A stretch of 64,000 nt of DNA from Limisphaerales bacterium (lineage in GTDB: Bacteria; Verrucomicrobiota; Verrucomicrobiia; Limisphaerales; AAA164-E04). Both the position numbers and the translations under genes were made by a program. The DNA lies in contig JAMASS010000004.1 of the NCBI GenBank assembly GCA_024761205.1, positions 585,895 to 649,894 on the forward strand, written 5' to 3'. Shown piece by piece: positions 7,763 through 43,268 of the stretch. A model generated the notes under the pieces. It worked only from the letters and a program-made list of their open reading frames with translations. It ran no database searches and was not told the DNA's origin. Numbering within the stretch: position 1 is the first letter of the stretch; every line of letters begins with the position of its first letter.

Positions 7763-7932
7763 AACTGCCGATCCGGTTTCACCATTTCGATCTGCGAGCT
7801 TTGCGGCAGGACAAATGGTCGATTTAGTTGATGATTTTTTTCTCGGCCCGCAGCCAGTTGGTTGATTACCGGTTTTTGAAGAGCATCCTGTTCGTGGCGC
7901 ATATTTGAAGAGTCTGCTGACCGGTTATTACT

Positions 7933-8877
7933 GTGAAAGTCTTTAGTGGCACCTCTAATCTCTTGCTGGCCCAAGCTATTAGCAAGTACATTGATATTCC
8001 TTTAGGGAAGTCCACCGTTTCGGCATTTCCGGACGGTGAAACCTTCGTGAAAATTGAGGAAAATGTGCGGGGCGAGGATACCTTCGTCGTTCAGTCGACC
8101 TGTCCGCCGACCAATCATCACTTGATGGAGCTATTTATCATGATCGACGCGTTGCGCCGATCCAGCGCTTCAAGGATTACGGCGGTATTGCCCTTTTACG
8201 GTTACGCCCGTCAGGATCGCAAGGACCAACCGCGGGTACCGATCACCGCCAAGTTGGTGGCGAACCTCTTGGTAGCGTCGGGGGCGAACCGAATGTTGAC
8301 GATGGATCTCCACGCACAGCAGATTCAGGGGTTTTTCGACATTCCGGTGGATCATCTATATGCGGCCCCCGTCATGTATGAGTATCTGAAGACCAAGGAA
8401 TTCGACAAGCTGGTGGTGGTCAGCCCGGACGTGGGTGGCATCAAGATGGCACATGCCTACGCCCAGGTCTTGGGTGCCGACTTAGCGATTGTGGCCAAAC
8501 GGCGAAAGAGCCCTACCGAGATCGAGTCCATGTCGGTGATTGGGGAGATTGAGGGGCGGACAGCCCTTTTGGTCGATGATTTGACCGAAACCGCCGGTAC
8601 GCTAACATCCGCGGCGCAGACCTTAAAGGAGAAAGGAGCATCGCAGATTTTGGCCTGCGTTTCTCATGCACTACTCAGCCAAAAAGGAGTTGAAAGATTA
8701 TGCGAATCAGATATTGACGAGTTGATCACGACTGATACAGTCCTTCGCTCTGCTGTTGAGGGGATCAACGTGACGACCTTATCGGTAGCAGGGTTACTTG
8801 GGGAAGCGATCAAGCGGATTAATAGTAATTCCTCGGTTACATCGCTGTTTCGATTTAACGGCGGGATGACGAGTTGA
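7933..8877 (+). CDS. prs: Ribose-phosphate pyrophosphokinase (PRPP synthetase)
   Basis: Makes phosphoribosyl pyrophosphate from ribose 5-phosphate and ATP. It has 314 residues, the usual class I length, and starts at GTG 7933 (MKVFSGTSNLLLA). The signature DLHAQQIQGFFD with the flexible-loop region before it (YARQDRKDQPRVPI), SPDVGGIKMA, and a PRPP-loop-like LVDDLTETAGT are all visible. In most relatives that last motif reads DDMIDTAGT; the TE is a mild change. It heads a co-directional run with rplY, pth, rpsF, ssb and rplI, a prs-rplY-pth order that is widely conserved. Confidence 0.97.
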   Translation: MKVFSGTSNLLLAQAISKYIDIPLGKSTVSAFPDGETFVKIEENVRGEDTFVVQSTCPPTNHHLMELFIMIDALRRSSASRITAVLPFYGYARQDRKDQPRVPITAKLVANLLVASGANRMLTMDLHAQQIQGFFDIPVDHLYAAPVMYEYLKTKEFDKLVVVSPDVGGIKMAHAYAQVLGADLAIVAKRRKSPTEIESMSVIGEIEGRTALLVDDLTETAGTLTSAAQTLKEKGASQILACVSHALLSQKGVERLCESDIDELITTDTVLRSAVEGINVTTLSVAGLLGEAIKRINSNSSVTSLFRFNGGMTS

Positions 8878-8916
8878 TGGCCCTTTTGGCGTTTATCAAT
8901 ACAGTTTGATTGAATC

Positions 8917-9534
8917 ATGAAAGCAGTTCCACTTAGTGCAGAAACTCGCAGCGTTTTCGGAAGGAATCGCGTAAAGAAAATCCGAGCGAACGGACGGATT
9001 CCCAGTGTGCTGTATGGAAAGGGCGAGGAGCCCGCTGTCATTGATATCTCTGAGAAAGACTTCGAGCGTTTGGTCTATCATTCGGTATCTGAGAACGTCT
9101 TGGTCGATCTCTCGATCGAAGGCGATCAAGCGGGGAAGCATTTGGCGATGATCCAGGAGGTCGATCATCATCCCCTGAGTGGCAAGGTGCTCCATGTGGA
9201 CTTTCACAAAGTTTCGGCCGATGAGCCGGTGACCATCACCGTGCCGATTGAAACCAAGGGTGAGGCTGTGGGGGTCAAGACCTCGGGTGGCACCCTTGAG
9301 CATGTGTTGTTCCGTGCCAAGCTAAAGGCGCTCCCCGAGGATTTGCCGGCGGTGATTACGATTGATGTCACAGAAATGCAGGCGGGTGAGATTCTTCACC
9401 TCGGTGAGGTGCCGTTGCCTGAAGGCGTCGAAATTTTGGGTAATGCGAGCATTCCAGTGATTACCATTACCGCACCTCGGGTCAAAACCGATGCCGCTGA
9501 AGCAGAGGGCGAAGACGGAAAAGAGAAGAAGTAA
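8917..9534 (+). CDS. rplY: Large ribosomal subunit protein bL25 (Ctc/TL5 family)
   Basis: 5S rRNA-binding ribosomal protein with the long two-domain Ctc/TL5 architecture (205 residues). The N-terminal domain has the RNA-binding pattern GRNRVKKIRANGRIPSVLYG, and HPLSGKVLHVDFHKV precedes the C-terminal beta domain (VPIETKGEAVGVK, then VPLPEGVEIL). It ends in an acidic and lysine-rich tail. It lies 40 bases after prs and just before pth. Confidence 0.95.
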   Translation: MKAVPLSAETRSVFGRNRVKKIRANGRIPSVLYGKGEEPAVIDISEKDFERLVYHSVSENVLVDLSIEGDQAGKHLAMIQEVDHHPLSGKVLHVDFHKVSADEPVTITVPIETKGEAVGVKTSGGTLEHVLFRAKLKALPEDLPAVITIDVTEMQAGEILHLGEVPLPEGVEILGNASIPVITITAPRVKTDAAEAEGEDGKEKK

Positions 9535-27399: not shown

Positions 27400-28090
27400 C
27401 TACTAATGCCCGCAGATTGCCGAAGCGACCTCAGCGTGCGCACCGGCACGGCCTTGGAGCGTTCCAAAGTGCGCCGCAAATGGGCAATCGCCGTTACCTG
27501 TGTTTGACCGAGCCTCAAGGGCGGGGTGAGCATGAAACCGCACCGAGAATATCGGCGTCAGCCAAAAGACCGCCTGCTTCAGGCTTGGGCCGCGCGAAGG
27601 CAAGGACGCCTCGTTCTCCGGCCCGGGCTGAGGCGGATGAAACTTACTTTAGCGGGAAACATGCCAACATGAGCAACGCTCGCCGAAGGCCGCTTAAAGG
27701 CACCGGATGCGGGCACCGTGAGCAAAAGAGAGGGAGGGGGGCGGCGGGAAAGTTTTGCGCTCGGTTAGGAACCCGGAACCGCCAAGGGCGGGCGCCGTGG
27801 GCAAGAGGGCGGCGGGAAAGACCGGACGAGGCAGCGGCTTATGCGGGATTCGCCCATGAAGGAGATCAATCACTCCGAATACGTGTGCGGCACGGTGCAC
27901 CCGAACGGTGTGGAATCCTTCTGGCCCATGCTGAAACGGGCATATAGGGGCACGTTTCACAAAATCTCCCCTAGGGACCTGAATCAGTGCATTCAAGAAT
28001 TTTCGTCGGCAAGCTCGGGGCTTCGCCAAGCGGACACGCTGGCGCAAATGACTGCGCTGGCCGTCGGCCTTGTTGGCCGTCGGCACGGCC
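27400..28090 (+). mobile_element. IS1595-family transposase remnant
   Basis: Fragments in different frames match an ISXO2/IS1595 transposase. They are LSVRTGTALERSKVRRKWAI, then the catalytic-core start ADETYFSGK (DDE-type Asp region), and the C-terminal part NHSEYVCGTVHPNGVESFWP with LKRAYRGTFHKISPRDLNQ. Frameshifts and an interruption between the DETYF and HPNGVESFW parts show it is dead. I could not define its terminal inverted repeats. It sits inside the decayed stretch after the restriction island. Confidence 0.75.
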
Positions 28091-28370
28091 CTTTCATCGC
28101 TGATAACGGACTGCCTCTCGGGAAGGGGGGGCATGAGCAGAGTCCACGCTTCAAGGGCGCGACGCCCGAGGGCATTGATGCGAGCAGCCATCCGATTGGG
28201 AACCTTTCCAGCGTCGGCTTGATCGGGCCTTGCCGAAGCTCTAATGGAACGACCTAGCTGCCGTTGGATGATTACCCCACCCCCGAGGTGATGGCGAGAA
28301 ACCGAGTGGACAATGCCCTCTATCCCGCAAAGACTTTTGCCGCTAAATCAAGTGTATAATTCCCAAATCT

Positions 28371-31839: not shown

Positions 31840-32769
31840 CTAGCGAGCAATAACTTTGCTCCGGGACATTCGGGCTTTGAGAAAATCGAATAGCTGCAAC
31901 TCCAGCGGTTGCTCGGTGGTGAGAAAATGGTAGCCGATACCGTTCTTGTTACAAATAGACTCCACGGTCGCAAGGTGTTTCTCAAGTCTTTCGAGGTAGC
32001 CTTTACGCGCCTGATTAGGGTCTACATAGACCTCTTTCCCAGACTCCACATCCTGAAAGAAATTGGCTTGATCGAAAGTAAAGCGGCGTTCGGCTGGGTC
32101 GAGAAGCTGGAACACCTGAACTTCGTGCCCGCAGGCCCGAAGCAAACGCAGGCGATTTTCCAAGGCCTCAATAGGCGCCAACAGGTCTGAAATCAACACC
32201 ACCAGCCCGCGCCTGCGAACCAACTCGACGATTCGCTGCAGCGGGCTTTCAAGATCGGTTGAAGCGCCACTCGGCGGCTTCTCCAGAGCGAGCATGATTC
32301 GCCGGAGATGACCGCTGCGGTTTCGCGCGGGAAGGAAGTCATTGATCTTGTCCGCAAACGATAGCAGCCCCACCGCATCGCCTTGCTGGAAGAGAAAATA
32401 ACCCAGGGTGGCTGCCAGTGTGTTGGCGTAGTGGTATTTTGTATAGTCCCGGCTGCCATACTCCATTGACCGACTTTGATCCACCAGCAGATGACATCGG
32501 AGGTTGGTCTCATCCTCAAACTTTTTGATGTAGTAGCGATCACTCCGAGCATAAAGCTTCCAATCGAGGTAACGGGGATCATCTCCCGGCGAATATTGTC
32601 GATATTCGCTGAACTCGACGGAAAAGCCATGGAAAGGACTGCGATGGAGCCCGTTCCAAAAACCCTCGACGATCACCTTCGCCCGCAGTTCAAGGTTTTT
32701 GACAGCCATGAGGGCTTGGGGACTGACGAACCCCTGCTGACCCAAGACACTCTTTCCTTCTCTTGCCAA
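31840..32769 (-). CDS. DUF58 domain protein
   Basis: 309-residue protein with the DUF58 core: FSEYRQYSPGDDPRYLDWKL, then ARSDRYYIKKFEDET, and a VWA-like site DQSRSM. DUF58 proteins pair with MoxR ATPases and BatA proteins. No ATG fits. The start I use is TTG 32769, preceded by AAGGGAAG at a workable distance; an in-frame TAG lies about 40 bases upstream. The insert that separates this gene from moxR ends just before it, so the original start region may have been replaced. Confidence 0.88.
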   Translation of the reverse strand: MAREGKSVLGQQGFVSPQALMAVKNLELRAKVIVEGFWNGLHRSPFHGFSVEFSEYRQYSPGDDPRYLDWKLYARSDRYYIKKFEDETNLRCHLLVDQSRSMEYGSRDYTKYHYANTLAATLGYFLFQQGDAVGLLSFADKINDFLPARNRSGHLRRIMLALEKPPSGASTDLESPLQRIVELVRRRGLVVLISDLLAPIEALENRLRLLRACGHEVQVFQLLDPAERRFTFDQANFFQDVESGKEVYVDPNQARKGYLERLEKHLATVESICNKNGIGYHFLTTEQPLELQLFDFLKARMSRSKVIAR

Positions 32770-32835
32770 ATGAAACCCGCTTCCCTTGAAATTGCCTTCC
32801 CCGAGAAACTACCCACGATTCCCCGCCAAGCAAAC

Positions 32836-32868
32836 AAAAACGCCCACCCCGGAAAAGCGGAGCGGGCG
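32836..32868 (-). terminator. Intrinsic terminator, copy 1, between insert and DUF58
   Basis: On the minus strand an 11-base stem (CGCCCGCTCCG with CGGGGTGGGCG, two G-U pairs) is followed by TTTTTG. It lies after the last membrane-protein gene of the insert and before DUF58, so it should stop insert transcripts from entering DUF58-BatA. About 90 bases containing this hairpin and its upstream flank recur at 33357-33445. Confidence 0.8.
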
Positions 32869-32924
32869 AAGCGGGCGCAGAAGAAAAGGCGGTTGCCGCA
32901 AGGCCAGCCCTCAGCCGATGCCGC

Positions 32925-33257
32925 CTAATAATCAAACACCTTATATCCGGCGCGGAGCAACAAACTAAGGGCAGTTCCCCCGGAAAGAAACAACAGGAAC
33001 GCCGCTCCCAGCAGGACCGGAACTCGCTGCCGCCGACTGCCCCACACCGCCACCGGAAGCAACATGACCGCGTTTAGGAGAGTCAGAAACACAACGACCA
33101 AACCTAGGCACGCCTCTGCAAGCGAAAATCCGGACAAAGCTGGAAGGCAAAAATCAAAGAAACCAAAAACAACAGCGACCACAAAGATCGCCCGTGCCCA
33201 CCAAAGCCGCTTTGTCAAGCATTTCTGATTGGGGACAAAGTAGGTTTTCAAGTCCAT
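32925..33257 (-). CDS. Small membrane protein, insert paralogue M1
   Basis: 110-residue protein with about three or four membrane helices and the start MDLKTYFVPNQKCLTKRLWW. Conserved parts shared with M2 are ALSGFSLAEAC, LNAVMLLPVAVWGS and RQRVPVLLG. I chose ATG 33257, which gives exactly the length of M2. Function unknown. The hydrophobic, short and repeated nature would suit an anchoring, pore-forming or immunity-like protein, but nothing shows which. It is the last insert gene before DUF58 and is followed by terminator copy 1. Confidence 0.7.
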   Translation of the reverse strand: MDLKTYFVPNQKCLTKRLWWARAIFVVAVVFGFFDFCLPALSGFSLAEACLGLVVVFLTLLNAVMLLPVAVWGSRRQRVPVLLGAAFLLFLSGGTALSLLLRAGYKVFDY

Positions 33258-33274
33258 GCCTGCGCATCCTTTCA

Positions 33275-33340
33275 TCAGCGTCGTTCGTTGCGCCCGTCTC
33301 TCGTCAGATCCCGGCAACCGTAAATCTTAAAGCTATCCAT
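33275..33340 (-). pseudogene. Stub of the CHAT-like gene's 3' end
   Basis: A 21-codon frame, MDSFKIYGCRDLTRDGRNER, parallels the C-terminus of the gene at 34639-35052 (ESWQIYGCADLQRNGP) and of the copy at 34153-34293 (ENYKIYGCADLQRNGP). It sits directly in front of membrane gene M1, as the others sit in front of their membrane genes. That shows the duplicated unit was CHAT-like 3' end plus membrane protein. Confidence 0.5.
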
Positions 33341-33356
33341 CCCGCCGGCAACAAAC

Positions 33357-33387
33357 AAAAAACCCGCCCCGGAAAAACCGAGGCGGG
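33357..33387 (-). terminator. Intrinsic terminator, copy 2, inside insert
   Basis: On the minus strand a ten-base stem (CCCGCCTCGG with CCGGGGCGGG, one T-G pair) around a T-rich loop is followed by TTTTTT. It lies after membrane gene M2 and before M1. Sequence similarity to terminator copy 1 extends upstream into the ends of M1 and M2 (shared GCGGGCGAAGCGGGCGCAG and CGGTTGCCGCAAGGCCAGCC), marking a duplicated gene-plus-terminator unit. Confidence 0.8.
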
Positions 33388-33431
33388 CGAAGCGGGCGCA
33401 GGGGAAAAGGCGGTTGCCGCAAGGCCAGCCC

Positions 33432-33764
33432 TCAGCCGATGCCGTAACGTGCGGCGCGGTCCAATAAACTAAGGGCTTGCATCCAGAAACCGTATAACAG
33501 GAACGCCACTCCCAGCAGGGCCGGAACCCTTTGCCGCCAACTGCCCCACACCACCACCGGAAGCAAAACGACAGCATTCAGGAGCATCAGAAAGTCAAAG
33601 GCCAAACCAAAGCATGCCTCTGCAAGCGAAAATCCAGACAAAGCCGCATTCTCAAACATACTAATTACATTAGCAAATACAACGATTGCCAGAGCAGTGT
33701 ATAACCGCTTGGTCAAAGCGGACTGCTCCGGTATGAAGTAATGTCTGATTTTGTCTTTGTCCAT
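33432..33764 (-). CDS. Small membrane protein, insert paralogue M2
   Basis: 110 residues, hydrophobic, starting MDKDKIRHYFIPEQSALTKR. It is clearly homologous to M1: both contain ALSGFSLAEAC, a long Leu/Val helix, VVWGSWRQRVPALLG and a short Leu-rich end. Function unknown. It sits 63 bases after M3 and is followed by terminator copy 2. The spacing suggests co-transcription with the upstream insert genes. Confidence 0.7.
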   Translation of the reverse strand: MDKDKIRHYFIPEQSALTKRLYTALAIVVFANVISMFENAALSGFSLAEACFGLAFDFLMLLNAVVLLPVVVWGSWRQRVPALLGVAFLLYGFWMQALSLLDRAARYGIG

Positions 33765-33827
33765 TTTCTCCTGTCCGTTCTTCTTAGGGTCAGGGCGCGT
33801 CGGGAGGGGGCGGAGGGTCGGTCCGCC

Positions 33828-34127
33828 TTAAATCCCGGCAATCCATTCAAAAAATATACTCACCCAAAAAACCAGAGGGACGACGGACAGCAACCATGCC
33901 AGCCGCTTCTGCCGACCGATTCCCCATATCGCAACGGGAAACAAGAAAAACGGGATGGCACACATACAGGCACCGAAAAAATCAAGTAATAAGGGATTCG
34001 GGCGGGGAGAGGAAACGATAGCCAAGATCCATGCCAAATAAACGAACAGTGACCCAATCAGCCGGTGTTTCACTTTGCCGAACCGTCTGCCAAGGAAGTA
34101 TTCCTTGAAGTTAAAATTTCGCTTCAT
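33828..34127 (-). CDS. Small membrane protein, insert paralogue M3
   Basis: 99-residue membrane protein with about three helices. The start MKRNFNFKEYFLGRRFGKVK aligns with M4 (KRDYRKIFLGKRF), and the middle has FPVAIWGIGRQKRLAWLLS, parallel to the VVWGSWRQRVPALLG region of M1 and M2. It is more divergent than M1 and M2 are from each other. Function unknown. A copy of the CHAT-like gene's 3' end precedes it. Confidence 0.65.
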   Translation of the reverse strand: MKRNFNFKEYFLGRRFGKVKHRLIGSLFVYLAWILAIVSSPRPNPLLLDFFGACMCAIPFFLFPVAIWGIGRQKRLAWLLSVVPLVFWVSIFFEWIAGI

Positions 34128-34152
34128 ATTTCATCCTCTCCCCGCCTCAAGG

Positions 34153-34293
34153 TTACGGCCCATTTCTTTGCAGGTCCGCGCATCCATAGATCTTATAATT
34201 TTCCATGCCCTCGAACCCATGCTCCAATGCCTTAGTTTTGAAAGCTTCCATGCATGTATTCAACGGCCGGTTCGCCATTCGGTTGGAAAAAGG
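34153..34293 (-). pseudogene. Truncated copy of the CHAT-like gene's 3' end
   Basis: About 46 codons read MANRPLNTCMEAFKTKALEH, then GFEGMENYKIYGCADLQRN, closely matching the last 40 residues of the gene at 34639-35052 (MANQPLYECMRLFTDKALEH). No start or N-terminal part remains. It stands just upstream of membrane gene M3. Confidence 0.7.
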
Positions 34294-34320
34294 CAATCGA
34301 GGCGATCAATTAGTCGATGC

Positions 34321-34632
34321 CTAACGAAACCATGATATCAGGGCTGCTACCAGAGTCGCTAACGGAGGAATAGACAACAAGACCGCCGCGATCTTTTGTC
34401 AGCGTTTTCCCCATAAGATCACCGGAAGCATGACAACCAAGCCCACAAGAAGTATGGAGTATCCGATCATGTCCCGAGGATGGCTGCGTTCACCACTGAA
34501 TCTCAGAGAAGGCATGAACACTCCACTCAAAAGATAAGCCGCGAGTGCCCATAAAAGACGCCAATAGAAACTATTGAAACGTTTGCCAAGAAAGATTTTT
34601 CGGTAATCCCGTTTCACTGTCCTGCCTTTCAC
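34321..34632 (-). pseudogene. Small membrane protein M4 with premature stop
   Basis: A fourth paralogue. The N-terminus (VKRDYRKIFLGKRFNSFYW) and helices match M3. The frame meets TGA at 34401-34399 right after VILWGKR, but continues in the same frame with QKIAAVLLSIPPLATLVAAL to TAG at 34323, giving about the length of M3. One substitution (for example CGA or TGG to TGA) explains it. Two GTG starts (34632 and 34617) are possible; the second aligns with M3. The CHAT-like gene ends six bases upstream. Confidence 0.7.
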
Positions 34633-34638
34633 TTGTGG

Positions 34639-35052
34639 TTAAGGACCGTTGCGCTGCAAGTCCGCGCATCCGTAAATTTGCCAACTTTCTATTCCCTCGA
34701 ATCCATGTTCCAGAGCCTTATCGGTGAACAACCGCATACATTCATACAGAGGCTGGTTCGCCATCCAGTTGTTAAAGAAAACGCCTAGGGCTTCCGCCAT
34801 TTCGTTGTGTTTAGTTCCCCCGTAGGTAAGATTGTTTATTGTAATCAAAGGGTGAAGATACCAAGGACCTTCGGAACCTCTCGGCACTGAAATTGTTTCT
34901 GACCACAGCACGATGGCTCGGGGTTGGCGTCCCGCCCTTTGATACTCCGCCCCGGTGCTGGTCACTTGCGGAATGCCGAAGGCGTCGCACCACTCTTTCC
35001 CGGCGGTATTGCAGCCCATGAGGATGACGAGGCGGTAGGGATACTGGTTCAC
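34639..35052 (-). CDS. Possible caspase/CHAT-like fragment (insert)
   Basis: 137-codon frame with GTG start (MNQYPYRLVILMGCNTAGKE). The hydrophobic strand LVILMGC followed by NTA resembles the strand that ends in the catalytic Cys of clan CD peptidases (caspase, CHAT, gingipain types). The matching upstream HG motif is absent, because the 5' end joins the coupled ORF of cassette C5 in another frame. It is therefore probably truncated by recombination. The C-terminus (FEGIESWQIYGCADLQRNGP) recurs twice downstream. Family assignment is tentative. It could be another alpha/beta protein. Confidence 0.45.
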   Translation of the reverse strand: MNQYPYRLVILMGCNTAGKEWCDAFGIPQVTSTGAEYQRAGRQPRAIVLWSETISVPRGSEGPWYLHPLITINNLTYGGTKHNEMAEALGVFFNNWMANQPLYECMRLFTDKALEHGFEGIESWQIYGCADLQRNGP

Positions 35053-35124
35053 GTTTTCGCTGTCGGACGGAGCCGACGGTGGCCACAGACTGCGCCCCGA
35101 ACTCCTGATTGATCTGAACGGCGT

Positions 35125-35799
35125 TCATGAGGTTTCGGGCGGCGGCGGGCGGAAGGCGCGAGCGTCGATGCACTGCGGGATGTTCTCCGTGGCCGGATCG
35201 AAACCCACCAGGGGCTTGCCCTCCCAGTTTTCAAATTGAATGATGCAGTCGCCGTCCGGCCGGCCATCCTCCAAAAAACCCATCCAAACATAAGGAGCAT
35301 CCGGAAGACAATTTCCGCCGTTCGGATAATCGTCAACACTTCCCTGCACCCGTTCTTTGTATTCCTCCCAGGTCTCGGTGAGATACCAGTAAGTGCCATA
35401 ATCATCACCGGTGGCACACAGTTCGGCGTAGGCATCCCGGTCCGGGTTCAGGTCGTTGCGTTCCCCGCCCACCACGGCGTTGCGGGCGTTGCACGCCGAG
35501 CGAAACCAGATCGGTTGAGGTTTGTAACGGAACCCCAGACCCAGAGCACCGAGACCGATGATTTCCCCTTCTTTTGAGTGGATCGGCTCAATCTCATCCA
35601 TAATCTCACAACGCTTTTCCTGCTGATACAACCGCCATGGATGGTAGAGTTTTCCCTGCCAATGTGCAGGCCATTGATGGTAGAAGAAACTATAGAAATA
35701 TCCCCCTTTTCCCGGGGACAGAATGGCTGCCGCCTTTATCCGCCGGGAGGGCGGGTCGTAAAACATATACCAGTCTTTGTCCGGAGATTTGATCTCCAC
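35125..35799 (-). CDS. Cassette-array protein C5
   Basis: 224-residue member of the repeated family, starting at GTG 35799 behind a strong AAAGGAGG ribosome-binding site. The conserved N-terminal block is MFYDPPSRRIKAAAI. It also has the central NARNAVVGGERNDLNP, the block YWYLTETWEEY, the acidic GRPDGDCIIQFENWEGKP, and the end ATENIPQCIDARAFRPPPPE. No signal peptide or membrane helix. I do not recognise the family. The middle differs strongly from C1-C4. Its ATGA stop overlaps a downstream start (MNAVQINQEFGAQSVAT), but that frame runs on out of pattern into the CHAT-like fragment. Confidence 0.7.
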   Translation of the reverse strand: MEIKSPDKDWYMFYDPPSRRIKAAAILSPGKGGYFYSFFYHQWPAHWQGKLYHPWRLYQQEKRCEIMDEIEPIHSKEGEIIGLGALGLGFRYKPQPIWFRSACNARNAVVGGERNDLNPDRDAYAELCATGDDYGTYWYLTETWEEYKERVQGSVDDYPNGGNCLPDAPYVWMGFLEDGRPDGDCIIQFENWEGKPLVGFDPATENIPQCIDARAFRPPPPETS

Positions 35800-35822
35800 A
35801 AGCCCTCCTTTCGTTACAATAG

Positions 35823-35912
35823 CTATGTTTGTCCTTGCAATGCGGAATGACCGCCGCTTTCATCCACCGGGAGGGACGGGTCGTAAAAGGCATACAAGCT
35901 CTCGATTGCCAT
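35823..35912 (-). pseudogene. Cassette 5' stub with frameshift
   Basis: A 29-codon frame beginning MAIESLYAFYDP, the start of a cassette gene. One extra base after GACCCG shifts the frame (normal continuation SRRMKAAVI, visible in the next frame as SRWMKAAVIPH), and a stop follows. The rest of the cassette is deleted. It lies between the coupled ORF of C4 and gene C5, showing that at least one more cassette existed. Confidence 0.7.
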
Positions 35913-35929
35913 CGACGTCTCTCCTTTGC

Positions 35930-36037
35930 TTACGGCGCCAGAGCTTTCCAGACGGGGAAGCGTAGCCCCACTAGGTTGGCGCAGGCGGTAACCACAGCCT
36001 GCGCCCCGGACTCCTGATTGATTCGAACGATGTTCAT
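35930..36037 (-). CDS. Coupled small ORF after C4
   Basis: 35-residue ORF, MNIVRINQESGAQAVVTACA followed by NLVGLRFPVWKALAP, starting on the C4 stop codon (ATGA). Near-identical ORFs follow C1, C2 and C3. The ATGA overlap would allow translational coupling. It is either a small partner protein or a conserved 3' flank carried along by duplication. Confidence 0.5.
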   Translation of the reverse strand: MNIVRINQESGAQAVVTACANLVGLRFPVWKALAP

Positions 36038-36789
36038 GAGGTTTCGGGCGGCGGCGGGCGGAAGGTGCGGGCGTCGATGAAGGGCTGCGGGAGGTTCTCC
36101 GTAGCCGGCTCGAATTCTAGGCACAGGGGTCCTCCTCCCCATCCATCAAGACAGATTATAGCATCGCCTTCAGGCTGACCGGCGGCATCGATACCCTCCC
36201 AAACAAACACAGGGGTTGTCATCTGACCACGCTCCAGAGGCCACCACGCACGCAGCTCCTCCAGAGACCACGGCAGCACATTCTTATCCTCCAGAGACTC
36301 CCGCACCTCCTTTTCTGTTGGCTTGTCAGGTGCCAGTGCTTCGAATTCCTCCCAGGTCTCGGTGAAATACCAGTAAGCAGAGATTTCGATGGTCTGTTTT
36401 GAGAATGGAGTGCGGGGAGCCTTTAGAAAAGAAACAAGTTCTTTGAAGCCGTCCCGGCCAGGGTGAAGTTCGTTGCGCAGACCATTTACCACAGCGTTGC
36501 GGGCGTTGAACGCCGTGCGAAAACTGTATGGATGGCTGTTCCAGTCGTTGCAGCTGATGGCATCGGCTGGCATCCCGTAGCCGAACCCAAGAACCCCGCC
36601 TGATTTTGAAAATACGAATGACGGCTCGTCTCCTCCCAGTATCGTGAACGACGCCCGGTAAAGGCGACCCCGATGCCCAAAGGCGTCCACGCACACCCCG
36701 TTGTAATGATTTATGACAGCTAGTTTCATCCGCTGGGATGAGGGGTCATAAAAAGCATAGGGGGTCCGTATGAAATCGCCAGTCAGCAT
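36034..36789 (-). CDS. Cassette-array protein C4
   Basis: 251 residues from ATG 36789 (MLTGDFIRTPYAFYDPSSQR), the longest array member. A longer open frame extends upstream but has no family features. Conserved blocks are AFYDPSSQRMKLAVI, FNARNAVVNGLRNELHPGRD, YWYFTETWEEFEAL, AAGQPEGDAIICLDG, and EPATENLPQPFIDARTFRPP. Between these the sequence is largely unlike C1-C3, including an insert rich in charged residues (KPTEKEVRESLEDKN). No export signal. Function unknown. Confidence 0.7.
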   Translation of the reverse strand: MLTGDFIRTPYAFYDPSSQRMKLAVINHYNGVCVDAFGHRGRLYRASFTILGGDEPSFVFSKSGGVLGFGYGMPADAISCNDWNSHPYSFRTAFNARNAVVNGLRNELHPGRDGFKELVSFLKAPRTPFSKQTIEISAYWYFTETWEEFEALAPDKPTEKEVRESLEDKNVLPWSLEELRAWWPLERGQMTTPVFVWEGIDAAGQPEGDAIICLDGWGGGPLCLEFEPATENLPQPFIDARTFRPPPPETS

Positions 36790-36802
36790 AAGTTTTCTTC
36801 TC

Positions 36803-36922
36803 TTACGGCGCCAGAGCTTCCCAGACGTAGTCCCAGACGGGGAAGCGCACCCCCACCAGATTGGCGCAGGCGGTGGCCACAGACTGCGCCCCGAACTCCT
36901 GCTTGATCCCAACGGTGTTCAT
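36803..36922 (-). CDS. Coupled small ORF after C3
   Basis: 39-residue ORF (MNTVGIKQEFGAQSVATACA, then NLVGVRFPVWDYVWEALAP) starting at the C3 stop by an ATGA overlap. Relative to the ORFs after C1 and C4 it has four extra residues (DYVW). Confidence 0.5.
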   Translation of the reverse strand: MNTVGIKQEFGAQSVATACANLVGVRFPVWDYVWEALAP

Positions 36923-37602
36923 AAGGTTTCGGGCGGCGAAGGCAAGGCGGGGATGCCGGAGGCGTTGATGCGCCGAGGAATGTTCTCCGTGGCCAACTCG
37001 AATTCCAGGCACATGTATCTTCTTTTCAATTCCTCAAGCTCAATGATGCAGTCGCCTTCAGGCTCGCCCTCGTCCGAAACGCCCTCCCAGATATAAAGAG
37101 AGCCCGGAGTATGCGAGCCGCAGAGCGGCCAATACCAATCGATATCGCGCTCATCGTCTCGCCGCACTCGCACCTGCTTTCCGAATTCCTCCCAGGTCTC
37201 GGTCAGATACCAGTAACCCACATTCCACGGACCGCCTCCGGCCTGGATGGCAACCTGAACTTCGGCGAAGGTGTCCCGATTCGGGGCCAGGTCGTTGCGC
37301 CCCCAACTACTCTCCATCAACACGGCGTTGCGGGCGTTGACCGCCGGGCGAAACCGGTATTCGGGCGACTGAGCGTCCAGAAAAGCCGCCAGAGAAAAAT
37401 ACCCGAAACCGATGATTCCCCCCTGTTTCGAGTGAATCACCGAAACCTCGTCCATACCTATGTTTGCATCGACATTCTCATAACACCGCCCCCGGTGATA
37501 GAGAAGACTATGCCTGTATTGGGAGGTATACGGCCGAACGAAAGCCGCCTTCATCCTCCGGGAGGGCGGGTCGTAAAAAGCTATCAACTGGTCGCACGCC
37601 AT
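36919..37602 (-). CDS. Cassette-array protein C3
   Basis: 227 residues from ATG 37602 (MACDQLIAFYDPPSRRMKAA), with GAAGGGAAC as a ribosome-binding site. It is the nearest relative of C2: same length and the same central segments (HSKQGGIIGFGYFSL, PEYRFRPAVNARNAVLMESS, NDLAPNRDTFAEVQ). The shared blocks YWYLTETWEEF, YIWEGVSDEGEPEGDCIIEL, and ELATENIPRRINASGIPALP follow. The C-terminal end (IPALPSPPETL) differs from the TFRPPPPETS of C1 and C4. Function unknown. Confidence 0.7.
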   Translation of the reverse strand: MACDQLIAFYDPPSRRMKAAFVRPYTSQYRHSLLYHRGRCYENVDANIGMDEVSVIHSKQGGIIGFGYFSLAAFLDAQSPEYRFRPAVNARNAVLMESSWGRNDLAPNRDTFAEVQVAIQAGGGPWNVGYWYLTETWEEFGKQVRVRRDDERDIDWYWPLCGSHTPGSLYIWEGVSDEGEPEGDCIIELEELKRRYMCLEFELATENIPRRINASGIPALPSPPETL

Positions 37603-37617
37603 AAGCAGTTCCCTTCG

Positions 37618-37701
37618 TTACAGCAGGGCATTCAGGACAATGTTGCCGGCGCCGGGGGCCAGGTCGTAAAAGGCTACCAAAGTCGAGAATTCGTCCGTCA
37701 T
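37618..37701 (-). pseudogene. Mini chimera: cassette start joined to the secreted-protein end
   Basis: A 27-codon frame. MTDEFSTLVAFYD is the start of a cassette gene, and it runs straight into LAPGAGNIVLNALL and a stop, the C-terminus of the 598-residue secreted protein (NDLAPGAGNIVLDVLL). The junction lies in a short shared ACGACC. It is flanked by the coupled ORF of C2 and by C3. It shows that a second copy of the secreted gene once stood here and was deleted. Confidence 0.75.
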
Positions 37702-37715
37702 CGTCTCTCCTTTGC

Positions 37716-37835
37716 TTACGGCGAGAGGGCTTCCCAGACGTAGTCCCAGACGGGGAAGCGCACCCCCACCAGATTGGCGCAGGCGGTGGCCACAGACTGC
37801 GCCCCGAACTCCTGATTGATACGAACGGTGTTCAT
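37716..37835 (-). CDS. Coupled small ORF after C2
   Basis: 39 residues (MNTVRINQEFGAQSVATACA, then NLVGVRFPVWDYVWEALSP), overlapping the C2 stop by ATGA. It is almost identical to the one after C3, including the extra DYVW. Confidence 0.5.
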   Translation of the reverse strand: MNTVRINQEFGAQSVATACANLVGVRFPVWDYVWEALSP

Positions 37836-38515
37836 GAGGTTTCGGGCGGCGAAGGCAAGGCGGGGATGCCGGAGGCGTTGATGCGCCGAGGAATGTTCTC
37901 CGTGGCCAACTCGAATTCCAGGCACATGTATCTTCTTTTCAATTCCTCAAGCTCGATGATGCAGTCGCCTTCAGGCTGGCCCTCGTCCGAAACGCCCTCC
38001 CAGATATAAAGAGCGCCCGGACTATGCGAGCCGCAGAACGGCCAAAACCAATCGATATCGCGCTCATCGTCTCGCCGTACTCGCACCTGCTTTCTGAATT
38101 CCTCCCAGGTCTCGGTCAGATACCAGTAAACCGGGCCTCCCGGACCGCCTCCGGCCTGGATGGCATCCTGAACTTCGGCGAAGGTGTCCCGATTCGGGGC
38201 CAGGTCGTTGCGCCCCCAACTACTCTCCATCAACACGGCGTTGCGGGCGTTGACCGCCGGGCGAAACCGGTATTCGGGCGACTGAACGTCCAGAAAATCC
38301 GACAGAGAAAAATACCCGAAACCGATGATTCCCCCCTGTTTCGAATGAATCACCGAAACCTCGTCCGAACCTATGCCTGTACCGACATCCTGATAACGCC
38401 GCCCCCGGTGATAGAGAAGATTATGACTGTATTGGGAGGTATACGGAACCAAAGCCGCCTTCATCCGCCGGGAGGGCGGGTCATAAAAGGCATACAACTC
38501 GTCGGGGCGTCTCAT
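37832..38515 (-). CDS. Cassette-array protein C2
   Basis: 227 residues from ATG 38515 (MRRPDELYAFYDPPSRRMKA); longer upstream frames lack family features. It is a close duplicate of C3, differing mainly in the segment after AALVPYTSQYSHNLLYH and in the stretch QAGGGPGGPVYWYLT. Conserved blocks are as in C3. No signal peptide, so it is presumably cytoplasmic. Function unknown. Confidence 0.7.
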   Translation of the reverse strand: MRRPDELYAFYDPPSRRMKAALVPYTSQYSHNLLYHRGRRYQDVGTGIGSDEVSVIHSKQGGIIGFGYFSLSDFLDVQSPEYRFRPAVNARNAVLMESSWGRNDLAPNRDTFAEVQDAIQAGGGPGGPVYWYLTETWEEFRKQVRVRRDDERDIDWFWPFCGSHSPGALYIWEGVSDEGQPEGDCIIELEELKRRYMCLEFELATENIPRRINASGIPALPSPPETS

Positions 38516-38532
38516 CTTTTCCCTTCCTTTCG

Positions 38533-38640
38533 TTATGGCGCCAGAGCTTCCCAGACGGGGAAGCGTACCCCCACCAGATTGGCGCAGGCGGTGGCCACAG
38601 ACTGCGCCCCGAACTCCTGATTGATCTGAACGGCGTTCAT
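38533..38640 (-). CDS. Coupled small ORF after C1
   Basis: 35 residues (MNAVQINQEFGAQSVATACA, then NLVGVRFPVWEALAP), starting on the C1 stop codon (ATGA). Confidence 0.5.
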   Translation of the reverse strand: MNAVQINQEFGAQSVATACANLVGVRFPVWEALAP

Positions 38641-39257
38641 GAGGTTTCGGGCGGCGGCGGACGGAAGGTGCGGGCGTTGATGTACTGCGGGATGTTCTCC
38701 GTGGCCAACTCGAATCCCGGGTCTTTGTCTGAGTAGTTGTCAATCTCCATTATGCAGTCGTCGTTGCGCAAGCCCTCATCCGAAACGCCCTCCCAGATAT
38801 AAAAGCCAGCACCACCCAGAGGAAAGTAGTCGATCGGCCAGGCTAACGAGGTCTTAAAACCGCACTTATCTTCTGGAAGGTAGCTCACTCGCTCTTCGAA
38901 TTCCTCCCAGGTCTCGGTGAGATACCAATAAATCGAGGCACATCTATATTTTCTACGATATAGCGTGGCGAAAGTGTTGCCCGGGTATAGATACACGTCA
39001 TTGCGATGCCCATCCACCACGGCGTTGCGGGCGTTGATCGCCGGGCAAAAGCAATGTTCGATCTCATCCTCAAACCCAAAACCGATGACTTTCTCGTCTT
39101 TCGAGTAGATCGTCCCTGTCTCAAGATAACGATCATCAGAACGATACACCCGCCCCCGGTGGTAGAAAGCGTTTTTGTCTGATGAAAACGGAATGACCGC
39201 CGCTTTCATCCGCCGGGAGGGCGGGTCATAAAAGGCATACAATACCTCGTTGGCCAT
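38637..39257 (-). CDS. Cassette-array protein C1
   Basis: 206 residues, the first cassette after the secreted-protein gene. The start is ATG 39257 (MANEVLYAFYDPPSRRMKAA) with GAAGGGAAC upstream. Its middle (EDEIEHCFCPAINARNAVVD, then YRRKYRCASIYWYLTETWEE) differs from other members outside the shared blocks. It ends in FELATENIPQYINARTFRPP. The array position directly downstream of the 598-residue protein suggests co-transcription with it. An immunity-like role is possible but not shown. Confidence 0.7.
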   Translation of the reverse strand: MANEVLYAFYDPPSRRMKAAVIPFSSDKNAFYHRGRVYRSDDRYLETGTIYSKDEKVIGFGFEDEIEHCFCPAINARNAVVDGHRNDVYLYPGNTFATLYRRKYRCASIYWYLTETWEEFEERVSYLPEDKCGFKTSLAWPIDYFPLGGAGFYIWEGVSDEGLRNDDCIMEIDNYSDKDPGFELATENIPQYINARTFRPPPPETS

Positions 39258-39272
39258 AAGCGGTTCCCTTCG

Positions 39273-41069
39273 TTACAGCAGGACATCCAGGACAATGTTG
39301 CCGGCGCCGGGGGCCAGGTCGTTGCACACGGCGGCCAGGATGGCGACGCTGCCGACAGTGTCTTCGCCTCGTTCCAAGTCGCGGGCGTAATCGCGAAAGG
39401 CCGCCTCAAATCGTTCGGCAGTCGCGCCGCTGTTGCCCCAGACGGCGAAGAGCACCGCTCCGGTCCCGAAATAGGGCAAGGCACGGTTAACCAGGCGATT
39501 TTCGTAGAGGGCGGTATGCACGGCCGTCAGCCGATTCCCTTGAAGAAGGATGCCTTCTTTCTGCTTATCGAATTTGTCAAGTAAATCTGGGGCAGGAAGT
39601 TGACCGGCAGCGAGGGCATCATCGATTTCCTGCCTATATTTGAACATTAGTGCCATGTGATTGTGCATTCCCGAACGCGCTATTTGCGCCAAAACACGCC
39701 AGATTTCCTCATTCCAACGATTGACGACGGCTTGATTTATTCTCTGAACCCCAGTTGAGCGAAATCCATCGGTTCTTGTCCTGCCGGACCCACTTCCTGG
39801 TTTTAACCAGTCATATGTACGCTGCAAATGACGTATTGTTTGCACTTCTCCATTCTTCAACGGCGGATTGTAAGGCGGGCCTGTTGTCGGAAGGCGTTCG
39901 CCGTTTGCCTTGACGAGGGTTTTGGCGATGATCTCGACTTGGTTTTCTCCGGCGTCCTTGACGCTGAGCATGGCGAGGTTGCCCGCCGGGGTTTTCTCTA
40001 AGAATACGCCAGCAACATCGCTGGGCGTGACGCTGGTGCCGGTAAGGTCGATAGTGAGTTCGGCCTCGTGCAACCCGGCAGCAAGCGCGGCGAAGGGTTG
40101 CTCGTCGAAGGGGCCGAAGCTGGTGTCAACGGGTGTTGTCGGGGTGGTTGGGGGCGTTGTGGGCGTTGTGGGCGGCACGGTGGTGACGATGAGGCGGAAG
40201 AAGCAGATTGCGTCGCTGTGGTTGAAGCATTCCCTGATTCGTCCGGTGCTGGCGGCGGTGACGGTTTTCAGGGTCGTCCATTGCGGGGCGATTAGGGAGA
40301 GGGCCGCCTCAATCTTGTAGGTGTTGCCTTCCACTCCGTCCCAGAGGAGGCAGAGGTTGTTGGGCGGATTGTACTCGATGGCCAATCGGTCTCCCACGCT
40401 TTGCGCATTGGCTATGGATCGGGAAGCGAGAGGTTGGGCTTTCTCGAATAGTTGACTAGGTTCATCCACGCTTTGCTCTCTGGCTATGGGAGCGGGAGCG
40501 GGAGGCGTCGGTGGAAAGGTAGATGGCCGGCTGGGAATCTGGGTTGGGGTGGTGTCCGGGGTGAAGCCGTAGCGGAGGGTGTAACTGCCGGTGTCGATGG
40601 AACAATAGTGGCGAACCCCGGTCTGGAAGTACTCTATCGGTGGCACTCTATCGGGTGGCGACTCTGTCTCCGTGCTTCCACTCCGCTCCAATGGTACGTT
40701 GTTACGACTAGTGTCGATGGAACAATAGTGGTTCACTTTGACGTAGTAGGTGCCGGCGGTGACTTCGTGGGAAATGTTGAAGTTGTGGCCGGTGCCGCCG
40801 TCGTCGTTCCGGGTCAATTCGTTACCGTTGTTGTCATATAAGCGGCCGTAAGTGTCGGTCTCGTCGCCGGTGTATTCGGTGTAGGCCCAGATGGTGCCGG
40901 CGCACTGCACGGTGAGGTAATAGTTTTCGGAATCGCCGCTGTTGCTGATGGAACCGCTGCGCATTAATGAGAGCTCTTTGCATTGCGCATTGGCGGCGGC
41001 GGGCGCGATGAGGACCGCCGCAATGATGAAAAGTTTGGTGATTTGTTGTCTGAGGCTGAACGTTTTCAT
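39273..41069 (-). CDS. Secreted PPC-domain protein heading the cassette array
   Basis: 598 residues. A signal peptide (KLFIIAAVLIAPAAANAQ) is followed by a pre-peptidase C-terminal (PPC) beta domain (GSISNSGDSENYYLTVQ, then AGTYYVKVNHYCSIDT). A short in-frame duplication repeats HYCSIDT; the 22-base repeat copies begin near 40594 and 40708. A second beta domain (YNPPNNLCLLWDGVEGNTYK) leads to a Pro/Thr linker. The C-terminal half is helical and lacks known motifs (RINQAVVNRWNEEIWRVL, then GTGAVLFAVWGNSGATAERF), ending NDLAPGAGNIVLDVLL. The layout (export signal, beta domains, linker, unknown C-terminal domain) recalls secreted effectors, but a toxin role is only inference. Confidence 0.65.
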   Translation of the reverse strand: MKTFSLRQQITKLFIIAAVLIAPAAANAQCKELSLMRSGSISNSGDSENYYLTVQCAGTIWAYTEYTGDETDTYGRLYDNNGNELTRNDDGGTGHNFNISHEVTAGTYYVKVNHYCSIDTSRNNVPLERSGSTETESPPDRVPPIEYFQTGVRHYCSIDTGSYTLRYGFTPDTTPTQIPSRPSTFPPTPPAPAPIAREQSVDEPSQLFEKAQPLASRSIANAQSVGDRLAIEYNPPNNLCLLWDGVEGNTYKIEAALSLIAPQWTTLKTVTAASTGRIRECFNHSDAICFFRLIVTTVPPTTPTTPPTTPTTPVDTSFGPFDEQPFAALAAGLHEAELTIDLTGTSVTPSDVAGVFLEKTPAGNLAMLSVKDAGENQVEIIAKTLVKANGERLPTTGPPYNPPLKNGEVQTIRHLQRTYDWLKPGSGSGRTRTDGFRSTGVQRINQAVVNRWNEEIWRVLAQIARSGMHNHMALMFKYRQEIDDALAAGQLPAPDLLDKFDKQKEGILLQGNRLTAVHTALYENRLVNRALPYFGTGAVLFAVWGNSGATAERFEAAFRDYARDLERGEDTVGSVAILAAVCNDLAPGAGNIVLDVLL

Positions 41070-41154
41070 ATTACTCTGATGATAGCTTGGTCCTTATTGT
41101 CGCACTCCGGTAAGGCAACGAGACCAACGCAAGCGTAACCCGCACCGGGCCGTT

Positions 41155-41296
41155 TGCAAACATTACCAGTAAAGCACTGAAGTAATTCCCGCTTATTCAT
41201 CTCGCCACTGCCGAGAGCGGAACTCTCCCGGCGCTGTGACGGAACTATTGTATTCGCGAGTAACCCGATGATCGGACGTTACCAATAATGTTTGCA
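41155..41296. repeat. Inverted repeat upstream of the secreted-protein gene
   Basis: TGCAAACATTA at 41155-41165 is the exact reverse complement of TAATGTTTGCA at 41286-41296, about 120 bases apart, between the small 262-codon gene and the secreted-protein gene. Possible paired sites of a regulator or an element end. It could also be chance at this length. Confidence 0.4.
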
Positions 41297-41321
41297 GGAG
41301 GGAATCTATCAAACAGCGGCA

Positions 41322-42110
41322 TTACGGCGAACTTTTTTCACGATTTTTTGCGGCCTGTTCTTTGGCTTCTTCTTTCTGGCGGATTTGGTCGCGCCATTTC
41401 TCAAGGCGTTCTTCCGCTTGGCTCAGGTATTTGCCCGTGCCGGTGAGGATGAAGGGGACGATGAGTTGCGGTCCCCGGACGCCGCTGATTTGCTGGGAAA
41501 TGCGCAGGAATAGTTGGTAGTCCGACAGCAGCGTGCCAAGGGTGGCGAGGAGGTCGTCAGCGATGGGAATGGCGGTCTTGATTTCAGTGAAGGTGTCGTA
41601 GTGCGCCACGTAGTAGAAGTGATCGGCGAAGGAGCAGCCGGCGCTGCATTCGTGGGAGGTTTCGAGGATGAGGATTTCGCCCGTCTTCATCACGGTGTCC
41701 GTTTCCACGGTGAGCGTGACGCTTGTGGTGAGGGTATCGCTGACGGTGACTTTCAGGCCGGTGGTGAAGCTGGGCAGGGCGGGCGGCAGGGTGAGGGGTT
41801 CTTGGCCGATTTTGGCGAGGGCGGCGTTGACGGAGACGAAGGCCATGTTGCCGGTCATGGTGTATTCCTGACCGAGGCGGCCGCGGCGTTTCTGGGTCTG
41901 GCCGAACTCTTTCCAGGCGAGTTTCTGGCGGGCGGTGAGCTCCCGCCAAGCGGCGGCGCAGCAGGCAAGGGAGGCGCGGGCTTCCCGCTGCTTGGGGGTG
42001 TTGGGGTTGACGGGAACGGCCCGGGTGCGGGTGTATTGCCCGAAACGGTTGCGAGAGAAGACTTGACCGCCCTGGGCGCCGGAATTGGGGATGCCTAAGA
42101 ATTTTGCCAT
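41322..42110 (-). CDS. Uncharacterised protein at the insert's upstream end
   Basis: 262 residues, no signal peptide. The start MAKFLGIPNSGAQGGQVFSR and the following RTRAVPVNPNTPKQREARA, LTARQKLAWKEFGQ and NMAFVSVNAAL resemble short proteins that I recall from prophage-like and uncultured bacterial contigs, without a known role. The middle has a Thr-rich beta region (SDTLTTSVTLTVETDTV), and the end is a charged coiled coil (RLEKWRDQIRQKEEAKEQ). It is the first insert gene downstream of moxR. Confidence 0.55.
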   Translation of the reverse strand: MAKFLGIPNSGAQGGQVFSRNRFGQYTRTRAVPVNPNTPKQREARASLACCAAAWRELTARQKLAWKEFGQTQKRRGRLGQEYTMTGNMAFVSVNAALAKIGQEPLTLPPALPSFTTGLKVTVSDTLTTSVTLTVETDTVMKTGEILILETSHECSAGCSFADHFYYVAHYDTFTEIKTAIPIADDLLATLGTLLSDYQLFLRISQQISGVRGPQLIVPFILTGTGKYLSQAEERLEKWRDQIRQKEEAKEQAAKNREKSSP

Positions 42111-42263
42111 AAATTTCAGTCAGGTTAAGGGTTTGGGCATTGGATTTTGCTGATTTTGGCCCGAGAAGTCCAAGGGAAATGTCGAGGGAGGGAAGGGAGG
42201 CGAAGAGGGGTCAAAAATAGCCGTTCACCGTATGGGTATCGGTGGGGTATCGGGGGAGGATGG

Positions 42264-43268
42264 TCAGGCGGGGACGGATTCGAGGAGGTGATCGATGATT
42301 TCGTTGACGGAAATCCCCCCGGCTTCTGCCCGGTAGTTCACCAAGATGCGGTGCCGTAGCGAGGGCTTGGCTAAGGCTTGGATGTCTTGCTGAGTGACAT
42401 GGGCTCGGTTTTGAAGGAGCGCCCGCACTTTGGCGCCGAGGATGAGGCATTGGACGCCTCGGAGACCGGCGCCCCAGCTGATGTAATTCTGGGTGAACTC
42501 AGGGGAGCCGCCTTGATGCGGTCGGGAGGCGGCGGCAAGTTTCACGGCGTGGCGCACGATGTCTCGGGCGATGGGGACCTTCTTGACGATTTGCTGGAAG
42601 CGCAGCACATCATCCCCGTTGAATAAGGCATTGATGGTTTCCGGAGCGGTAGAGGTGGTTTGGGAAACGACTTCGACTTCATCGTCTTCCGACAGATAGT
42701 CAATGACGACGTTGAACATGAACCGGTCAAGCTGTGCTTCCGGAAGCGGGTAGGTGCCTTCCATTTCAATCGGATTCTGTGTGGCCAGGACAAAAAATGG
42801 TGCGGGAAGATTGTGCCGCACGCCGGCTGCCGTGACTTGGTGTTCTTGCATCGCTTCCAACAGGGCGGCCTGGGTCTTGGGCGGGGTGCGGTTGATTTCG
42901 TCCGCCAAGATCATGTTGGCGAACACGGGGCCTTTGACGAAGCGGAGTTTTCGTCCATCGTCGCCGTCCTGAAGGATTTCCGTTCCTGTGATATCCGCCG
43001 GCATGAGGTCCGGGGTGAATTGGATTCTTTGAAATTCAAGGTGGAAGATCTGAGCGATGGACTTCACCAAGAGGGTTTTCGCCAATCCGGGGGCTCCCGT
43101 GATGAGGCAATGCCCGCCGGAAAACAGAGCGATCAGAATCTGCTCGATCGCCTCTTTTTGGCCCACGATCACTTTGCTGAGTTCCTGCTCGATCTGGTTG
43201 CGGCTCTGGAAAATTTGTTCCACGGTTTGCTGCTCGCTGATTCCGCTCTCTGTCGCTTGTGTTTCCAC
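42264..43268 (-). CDS. MoxR family AAA+ ATPase
   Basis: 334 residues. Walker A is GAPGLAKT, Walker B is ILADEINRTPPKTQAALLEA, and the sensor region LATQNPIEMEGTYPLPEAQ is intact. MoxR ATPases act with DUF58 and BatA-like VWA proteins as chaperones for membrane or periplasmic complexes. Its usual partner DUF58 lies 9.5 kb away, because the insert described here separates them. It follows DUF4159 by 94 bases. Confidence 0.93.
   Translation of the reverse strand: METQATESGISEQQTVEQIFQSRNQIEQELSKVIVGQKEAIEQILIALFSGGHCLITGAPGLAKTLLVKSIAQIFHLEFQRIQFTPDLMPADITGTEILQDGDDGRKLRFVKGPVFANMILADEINRTPPKTQAALLEAMQEHQVTAAGVRHNLPAPFFVLATQNPIEMEGTYPLPEAQLDRFMFNVVIDYLSEDDEVEVVSQTTSTAPETINALFNGDDVLRFQQIVKKVPIARDIVRHAVKLAAASRPHQGGSPEFTQNYISWGAGLRGVQCLILGAKVRALLQNRAHVTQQDIQALAKPSLRHRILVNYRAEAGGISVNEIIDHLLESVPA

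What the first reader, a model, noticed from the sequence alone, without database searches (positions are those of the whole stretch)
32770..42263. 9.5 kb cassette array inserted between moxR and its DUF58 partner
Seen: all insert genes run in the same direction as the host cluster. They comprise one 262-aa protein, one secreted 598-aa protein, five paralogous cassette genes, a possible caspase/CHAT-like fragment and four related membrane proteins. Known: moxR, DUF58 and BatA genes normally sit next to each other. Inference: a multi-gene system expanded by tandem duplication was placed inside the cluster. I do not recognise it as a described system. The conserved ends and divergent middles of the cassettes suggest ongoing diversification.
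Basis: partly seen in the sequence, partly recalled or inferred. Interest (0 to 1): 0.85.

Follow-up and report, generated by a model that had tools for sequence, protein, structure and literature searches.

The report
Toxin-tail-tagged immunity gene array
Between two normally adjacent genes, this bacterium carries 9.5 kb of gene copies that mostly follow a leftover tail of a secreted-protein gene, and which likely act as a stored set of immunity genes against a family of predicted swappable-tip toxins.

The parts
42264..43268 (-). moxR (AAA_3), upstream flank of the insert
   Evidence: Pfam PF07726 E 4.1e-63
31840..32769 (-). DUF58 gene, downstream flank; its 5' end is also copied on contig C24
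   Evidence: Pfam PF01882 E 9e-53; L017 7407-7569 and 9009-9277 98% identical to this region
41322..42110 (-). 262-aa protein; member of a dispersed, fragment-rich family of this genome, probably not part of the effector/immunity array
   Evidence: 10 matches in this genome on the window's contig and six others, none in 57 relatives; no Pfam or PHROGs family, only non-significant NCBIfam rows
39273..41069 (-). 598-aa secreted effector, type A: signal peptide, PPC-like trunk (about 27-293), unique C-terminal domain (about 321-598)
   Evidence: one hydrophobic segment, residues 10-28; trunk 89% identical to the 939-aa CHAT protein; weak PPC (E 0.056), NF038127 just below its cut-off; C-domain 50% identical to P0013 over 135 columns
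38637..39257 (-). C1, putative immunity gene next to the full-length type A effector
   Evidence: alignments A1, A4
38536..38652 (-). type A effector tail remnant, upstream of C2
   Evidence: tblastn 65% identity, E 2e-12
37832..38515 (-). C2, putative immunity gene
37719..37847 (-). type A effector tail remnant after C2
   Evidence: 72% identity, E 9e-17
37621..37719 (-). second, 598-like tail remnant fused to a cassette start, upstream of C3
   Evidence: 50% identity, E 1.3e-4; DNA repeat D13, 85% over 132 bp
36919..37602 (-). C3, putative immunity gene, about 88% identical to C2
36806..36934 (-). type A effector tail remnant, upstream of C4
   Evidence: 70% identity, E 3e-16
36034..36789 (-). 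C4, the C paralog with the highest dS to the others (start codon uncertain)
35933..36049 (-). type A effector tail remnant, upstream of the decayed C copy
   Evidence: 56% identity, E 2e-9
35804..35912 (-). decayed 5' remnant of a sixth C gene
   Evidence: tblastn E 3.6e-5; DNA repeat D4
35125..35799 (-). C5, putative immunity gene
35078..35140 (-). truncated type A tail, junction into the CHAT fragment; same junction on contig C24
   Evidence: E 0.003; junction sequences printed
34639..35052 (-). type B effector fragment: 3' half of a CHAT domain with the Cys block, lacking the His half
   Evidence: 57% identical to the 939-aa protein; alignment A3
34399..34617 (-). membrane gene m1, stops early relative to paralogs
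34156..34290 (-). type B (CHAT) tail remnant, upstream of m2
   Evidence: 64% identity, E 5.7e-18
33828..34127 (-). membrane gene m2, three hydrophobic segments, putative immunity
33432..33764 (-). membrane gene m3; no tail detected upstream
33293..33340 (-). type B (CHAT) tail remnant, upstream of m4
   Evidence: 62% identity, E 4.7e-4
32925..33257 (-). membrane gene m4, three hydrophobic segments, putative immunity
33362..33388 (-). terminator-like stem-loop after m3
   Evidence: 11-pair stem and T run; terminator-like sites as a class are not in clear excess of shuffles
32841..32868 (-). terminator-like stem-loop at the end of the array, before DUF58
   Evidence: 11-pair stem and T run; same caution

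Best explanation
The insert is an array of partner genes, 8 of its 10 C-type and membrane genes (decayed and shortened copies counted) lying directly behind a 3' piece, or once the whole, of a secreted protein gene, and it likely works as a store of immunity genes against that protein family's predicted toxic C-terminal domains. Shown: one trunk carries either the type A domain or the CHAT peptidase domain, a related PPC front on contig C45 carries a DUF3238-like end, and each of the three is followed by its own tandemly duplicated partner family. Inferred steps: (1) the C-terminal domains would be the toxic tips, delivered to neighbouring cells; (2) the soluble C proteins would neutralise type A tips and the small membrane proteins would block the CHAT tip; (3) when recombination replaced or displaced an effector, its partner gene was kept together with the last codons of the old effector; (4) unequal crossing-over between these homologous ends would then multiply and shuffle the cassettes and copy them between chromosomal loci.
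Confidence: 0.62

Rival explanations
1. The secreted PPC proteins are extracellular enzymes or surface proteins, and the downstream genes are dedicated chaperones or inhibitors that merely duplicated; no conflict between bacteria is involved.
For: Among the hits of the 598-aa protein, PPC is joined to many secreted domains: Peptidase_C14 (P0019, P0029, P0030, P0045), other peptidase families and a ricin-type lectin.
Against: Chaperone genes do not explain an array with no effector (C24), tails left in front of most copies, two unrelated partner families in one array, or the switch of C-terminal domains on a shared trunk.
Confidence: 0.2
2. The cassettes are a selfish or recombinogenic repeat: the conserved tail segments act as recombination sites, integron-like, and the C and membrane genes are passengers.
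For: Tails recur at near-constant places, segments are shared between contigs, a DUF58 5' piece travelled with the C24 array, and moxR|DUF58 is interrupted in two genomes of the genus.
Against: No integrase or transposase was recognised among the insert's ORFs; the tails are colinear 3' ends of effector genes, and no inverted repeats of 30 nt or more were found (shorter or imperfect sites could be missed); dN/dS is below 1 in 20 of 21 C pairs.
Confidence: 0.08
3. A self-directed cell-death or defence system: the CHAT peptidase cleaves the small membrane proteins and activates them, as peptidase-activated pore formers do.
For: A CHAT protein of a CRISPR system is a protein-cleaving partner enzyme (PMC10028731, title and start of abstract in a listing); here the partner is a small membrane protein.
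Against: The trunk begins with a signal peptide in the 598-aa protein, and the same segment stands upstream of the CHAT copy on C11, though in another frame; no PADLOC match; in the window the membrane genes remain without the His half of the peptidase; it does not explain the type A half.
Confidence: 0.1

Closest known systems
Polyimmunity loci of polymorphic toxin systems (PMC3482391; passages read)
   Same: Tandem paralogous immunity genes near secreted proteins with exchangeable C-terminal domains; caspase-like domains at C-termini of such toxins are described there
   Different: No listed Imm or Tox family was matched by the proteins tested here; a find in the held 300,000 of 357,715 characters returned 0 for PPC and for CHAT; here most copies keep an effector tail
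Type VI immunity gene arrays of Vibrio cholerae (PMC5361080; passages read)
   Same: Effector displaced, immunity gene retained, 3' end of the old effector shifted back; arrays of orphan immunity genes
   Different: No T6SS gene recognised in the insert; the Vibrio arrays are thought to come from horizontal transfer, whereas here tandem duplication within the array is evident
Orphan cdiA-CT/cdiI and mafB-CT/mafI cassettes (PMC3150448 and PMC4287609; passages read)
   Same: Secreted protein with constant front and variable tip, followed by immunity gene and orphan cassettes
   Different: Orphan CTs there usually start at the VENN motif and the EC93 one was functional; here only 16-135 residues of 3' end remain per remnant in the window
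Tandem esaG/tipC immunity paralogs of type VII systems (PMC9484751; abstract read)
   Same: Conserved blocks shared by tandem immunity paralogs, reshuffled by homologous recombination
   Different: Different families and a Gram-positive secretion system; the abstract mentions no effector tails between copies

Membership tests
Polymorphic toxin system | Constant N-terminal trafficking region with exchangeable C-terminal domains | tested here: met
   89% trunk identity over 282 columns, then unrelated C-termini; same in metagenome relatives
Polymorphic toxin system | C-terminal domain is toxic | not testable with these tools
   CHAT fold supported; for the type A domain only P0013 was found to share it; no assay possible
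Polymorphic toxin system | Linked gene whose product gives specific immunity | tested here: inconclusive
   Linkage shown, 15 of 17 and 7 of 9; protection untested
Polyimmunity locus | Tandem paralogous or mixed immunity genes | tested here: inconclusive
   Tandem C and membrane paralogs shown; that they are immunity genes is inferred
Polyimmunity locus | Members belong to a listed Imm family | tested here: not met
   No Pfam match for C1-C5, P0005, P0009 or four membrane proteins, save a MARVEL row at E 0.16; no NCBIfam match for C2 and two membrane proteins; so not filed under any Imm family
CDI/Rhs/MafB orphan toxin-immunity modules | Their own trunk families (filamentous-haemagglutinin-type or Rhs repeats, MafB N-terminus; labels recalled) | tested here: not met
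   Pfam and NCBIfam on both effectors list PPC-type and other weak matches, none of these trunks
CHAT / caspase-like (clan CD) peptidases | His and Cys after hydrophobic strands in a caspase-like fold (motif rule recalled) | tested here: met
Integron cassette array | Integrase gene with the array | tested here: not met
   None recognised among the insert's ORFs
Integron cassette array | attC-like sites | tested here: inconclusive
   No inverted repeats of 30 nt or more; short imperfect sites would be missed
Known anti-phage defence system | Match to a defence-system protein model | tested here: not met
   7 proteins, 0 PADLOC families

The most novel reading that the evidence does not exclude
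A rare polymorphic weapon family built on a secreted PPC trunk, with a caspase-like CHAT peptidase as one swappable warhead blocked by a new three-helix membrane immunity family and a second new warhead blocked by the C family, which stores immunity as cassettes tagged with a stub of the effector they defeat and copies them between three chromosomal loci.
Probability: 0.4. Interest if true: 0.75.

Novelty: new variant of a known kind. Interest (0 to 1): 0.6.

Why it matters
If true, it adds an exported trunk type, a CHAT peptidase warhead and two immunity families to bacterial conflict systems, in families so rare that a search of 5.8 billion proteins returned only 10 for the C family, several of them from this genome. 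The retained tails are a fossil record in DNA of which effector each immunity gene once accompanied, so the usually invisible history of orphan immunity genes could be read directly, and pairing becomes predictable: each partner should neutralise the effector type whose stub precedes it.

Tried and rejected
Normal part of the operon: rejected. I examined the best DUF58 loci of 14 relatives out of the 19 searched: 11 have moxR and DUF58 38-96 bp apart; in L037 (G001) they are 8.6 kb apart; in L041 and L044 moxR was not in the held sequence, nor in L065, which extends L044 to its contig end. The further DUF58 loci (lower identity) were not examined.

Phage or plasmid origin: C family, CHAT and membrane family gave no relative in viral contigs; P0012 and C2 gave none in plasmids. 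The phages collection was not searched. Named GTDB genomes (genome contigs): nothing for the C family or CHAT; these scans need exact short patterns.

Wide CHAT search: 180 of 387 genomes of the phylum (own genome included) matched A3, but every listed match outside this genome lies at profile positions 256 or lower, before the CHAT part. The list was truncated and for most genomes only two candidates were scored, so CHAT-only matches may have been missed. In the protein search for the CHAT part only the 7,997 candidates sharing most words were scored.

Assembly artefact: unlikely. The C24 array carries 98%-identical DUF58 pieces, so it belongs to this genome, and it lies inside its 62 kb contig.

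Rows dropped from the census: membrane-query matches on the wrong strand or far from the arrays (L017 12066-12122, L018 10637-10717 and 2890-2958) and a type A query match lying inside a membrane gene (L018 11917-11997).

Host identity was not determined. No secretion machinery was searched for. Loci L126 and L127 were fetched and used only as part of the control loci.
Full report
What is there. The insert (32770-42263) lies between moxR and DUF58, on the same strand as both. Read in its own direction it runs: 262-aa gene; 598-aa secreted protein; C1; tail; C2; tail; second tail; C3; tail; C4; tail; decayed C copy; C5; truncated tail; CHAT fragment; m1; CHAT tail; m2; m3; terminator-like site; CHAT tail; m4; terminator-like site; DUF58.

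The organising rule. Behind the stop codons of C1-C4 (overlapping ATGA) lies a 35-43-codon frame, behind C5 a truncated one. It is not a new gene: it matches a longer tail on contig C24, which in turn matches the 598-aa protein's own C-terminus (38% over about 47 columns, E 4e-5). Likewise the CHAT-like fragment and two shorter pieces match the C-terminus of a 939-aa protein on contig C11. Over window, C24 (L017) and C11 (L018), 15 of 17 membrane genes directly follow a CHAT tail or the full-length CHAT gene, and 7 of 9 C genes follow a type A tail or the full-length gene (tblastn E <= 0.05; decayed and partial copies counted; four spurious rows dropped, see Tried and rejected). Exceptions: m3, L017 13461-13721, C5 (behind a decayed C copy) and L017 14031. 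In the 64 kb window all 10 tail-query places with E <= 0.003 are in the insert (one is the 598-aa gene itself); the best outside is 0.041; 75.9 kb of control loci give nothing below 0.21; 5 of 20 shuffles had one hit at E <= 0.05.

The effectors are polymorphic. The 598-aa and 939-aa proteins are 89% identical over 282 columns of trunk and then have unrelated ends. The trunk has weak PPC matches (E 0.056 and 0.013, below cut-off) and NF038127 (over cut-off for the 939-aa protein, slightly under for the 598-aa one). P0013 from a metagenome shares the type A domain (50% over 135 columns) and also shares a different trunk with the CHAT proteins P0046 and P0048. On contig C45 a third PPC protein ends in a DUF3238-like domain and is followed by two tandem 66%-identical genes. 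So three C-terminal types each have their own duplicated downstream family.

Partners. C1-C5 show no hydrophobic segment; the membrane proteins have two or three in 11 of 12 tested, one in shortened m1. C1-C5 have no Pfam family; the four membrane proteins tested have none either, save a non-significant MARVEL row (E 0.16) for one; C2 and two membrane proteins have no NCBIfam or PADLOC family. The C-family search returned 10 proteins, four of them (P0007-P0010) with sources outside this genome. dN/dS is 0.39-0.86 in 20 of 21 C pairs and 1.14 in the youngest (C2-C3).

Movement. The C24 array carries two 5' pieces of this DUF58 gene at 98% identity, so part of this locus was probably copied there. 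The C5-tail-CHAT junction is shared between the two arrays. C24 and C11 share 476 identical bases spanning a tail end and a membrane gene. In the same genus, G002 and G003 have no insert (49 and 46 bp), while G001 has 8.6 kb of different content including an IS66-type transposase.

How it most likely works (inferred). Exported trunks carry alternative toxic tips; the gene behind each tip encodes its antidote. When a new tip and antidote arrive or an effector is lost, the old antidote stays with the last codons of its effector, including the native stop-start junction and ribosome-binding site of the antidote gene. Homologous tails and gene ends then support unequal crossing-over, giving tandem copies, hybrids (37621-37719) and decayed copies (35804-35912). 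The cell keeps protection against relatives that still use the old tips.

Comparison with known systems. Polyimmunity loci, homogeneous and heterogeneous, and C-terminal caspase-like toxins are described in PMC3482391 (passages). Arrays formed by effector displacement that keeps the immunity gene are described for V. cholerae T6SS (PMC5361080, passages). Orphan CT/immunity cassettes are described for CDI (PMC3150448, passages) and MafB (PMC4287609, passages); recombination at conserved blocks for type VII immunity genes (PMC9484751, abstract). It works like these; it is not filed as a member of CDI, Rhs, MafB or T6SS, because those trunks were not found. A paper search for 'CHAT domain' with toxin, immunity and polymorphic found two papers, both on fungi by their titles; one for PPC domain, toxin, immunity protein and caspase-like (3 of 4 terms) found eight, none holding 'PPC domain'; one for polymorphic toxin, Verrucomicrobia and immunity listed eleven, of which I read passages of one. 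These searches cover open-licence PMC papers only.

Limits. Toxicity, neutralisation and delivery are untested; host identity was not determined; metagenome DNA around the distant relatives could not be fetched.

Noticed in passing
L017 (contig C24) 7407-9277: A 386-aa gene (7823-8983) lies between two copies of the 5' end of this window's DUF58 gene; a relative of it (25% identity, E 2e-13) sits in the different moxR|DUF58 insert of the same-genus genome G001. The moxR|DUF58 junction looks like a recurrent insertion point.
   Followed up: partly
window 41322-42110: The 262-aa gene has partial or broken copies on six other contigs of this genome (C26, C67, C14, C4, C45, C5) and none in 57 relatives: a dispersed, decaying repeat family.
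   Followed up: partly
L018 (contig C11) 14930-15320: The start of the 939-aa effector gene is in another reading frame than the rest when compared with the 598-aa gene, so this copy may be broken at its N-terminus or mis-assembled. Described only.
   Followed up: no
L125 (contig C45) 2735-8173: A third PPC protein with a DUF3238-like end, followed by two tandem paralogs of about 420-430 aa that end in a hydrophobic, anchor-like stretch by eye.
   Followed up: partly
window 41130-41414: The stretch upstream of the 598-aa gene is 82% identical to L017 5279-5565 and, in its part up to 41220, about 94% to L018, so the upstream region is shared by several genes of this genome.
   Followed up: no
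window 27417-28257 (+): Two overlapping frames look by eye like pieces of a broken transposase gene downstream of the BatA-type gene; not tested.
   Followed up: no
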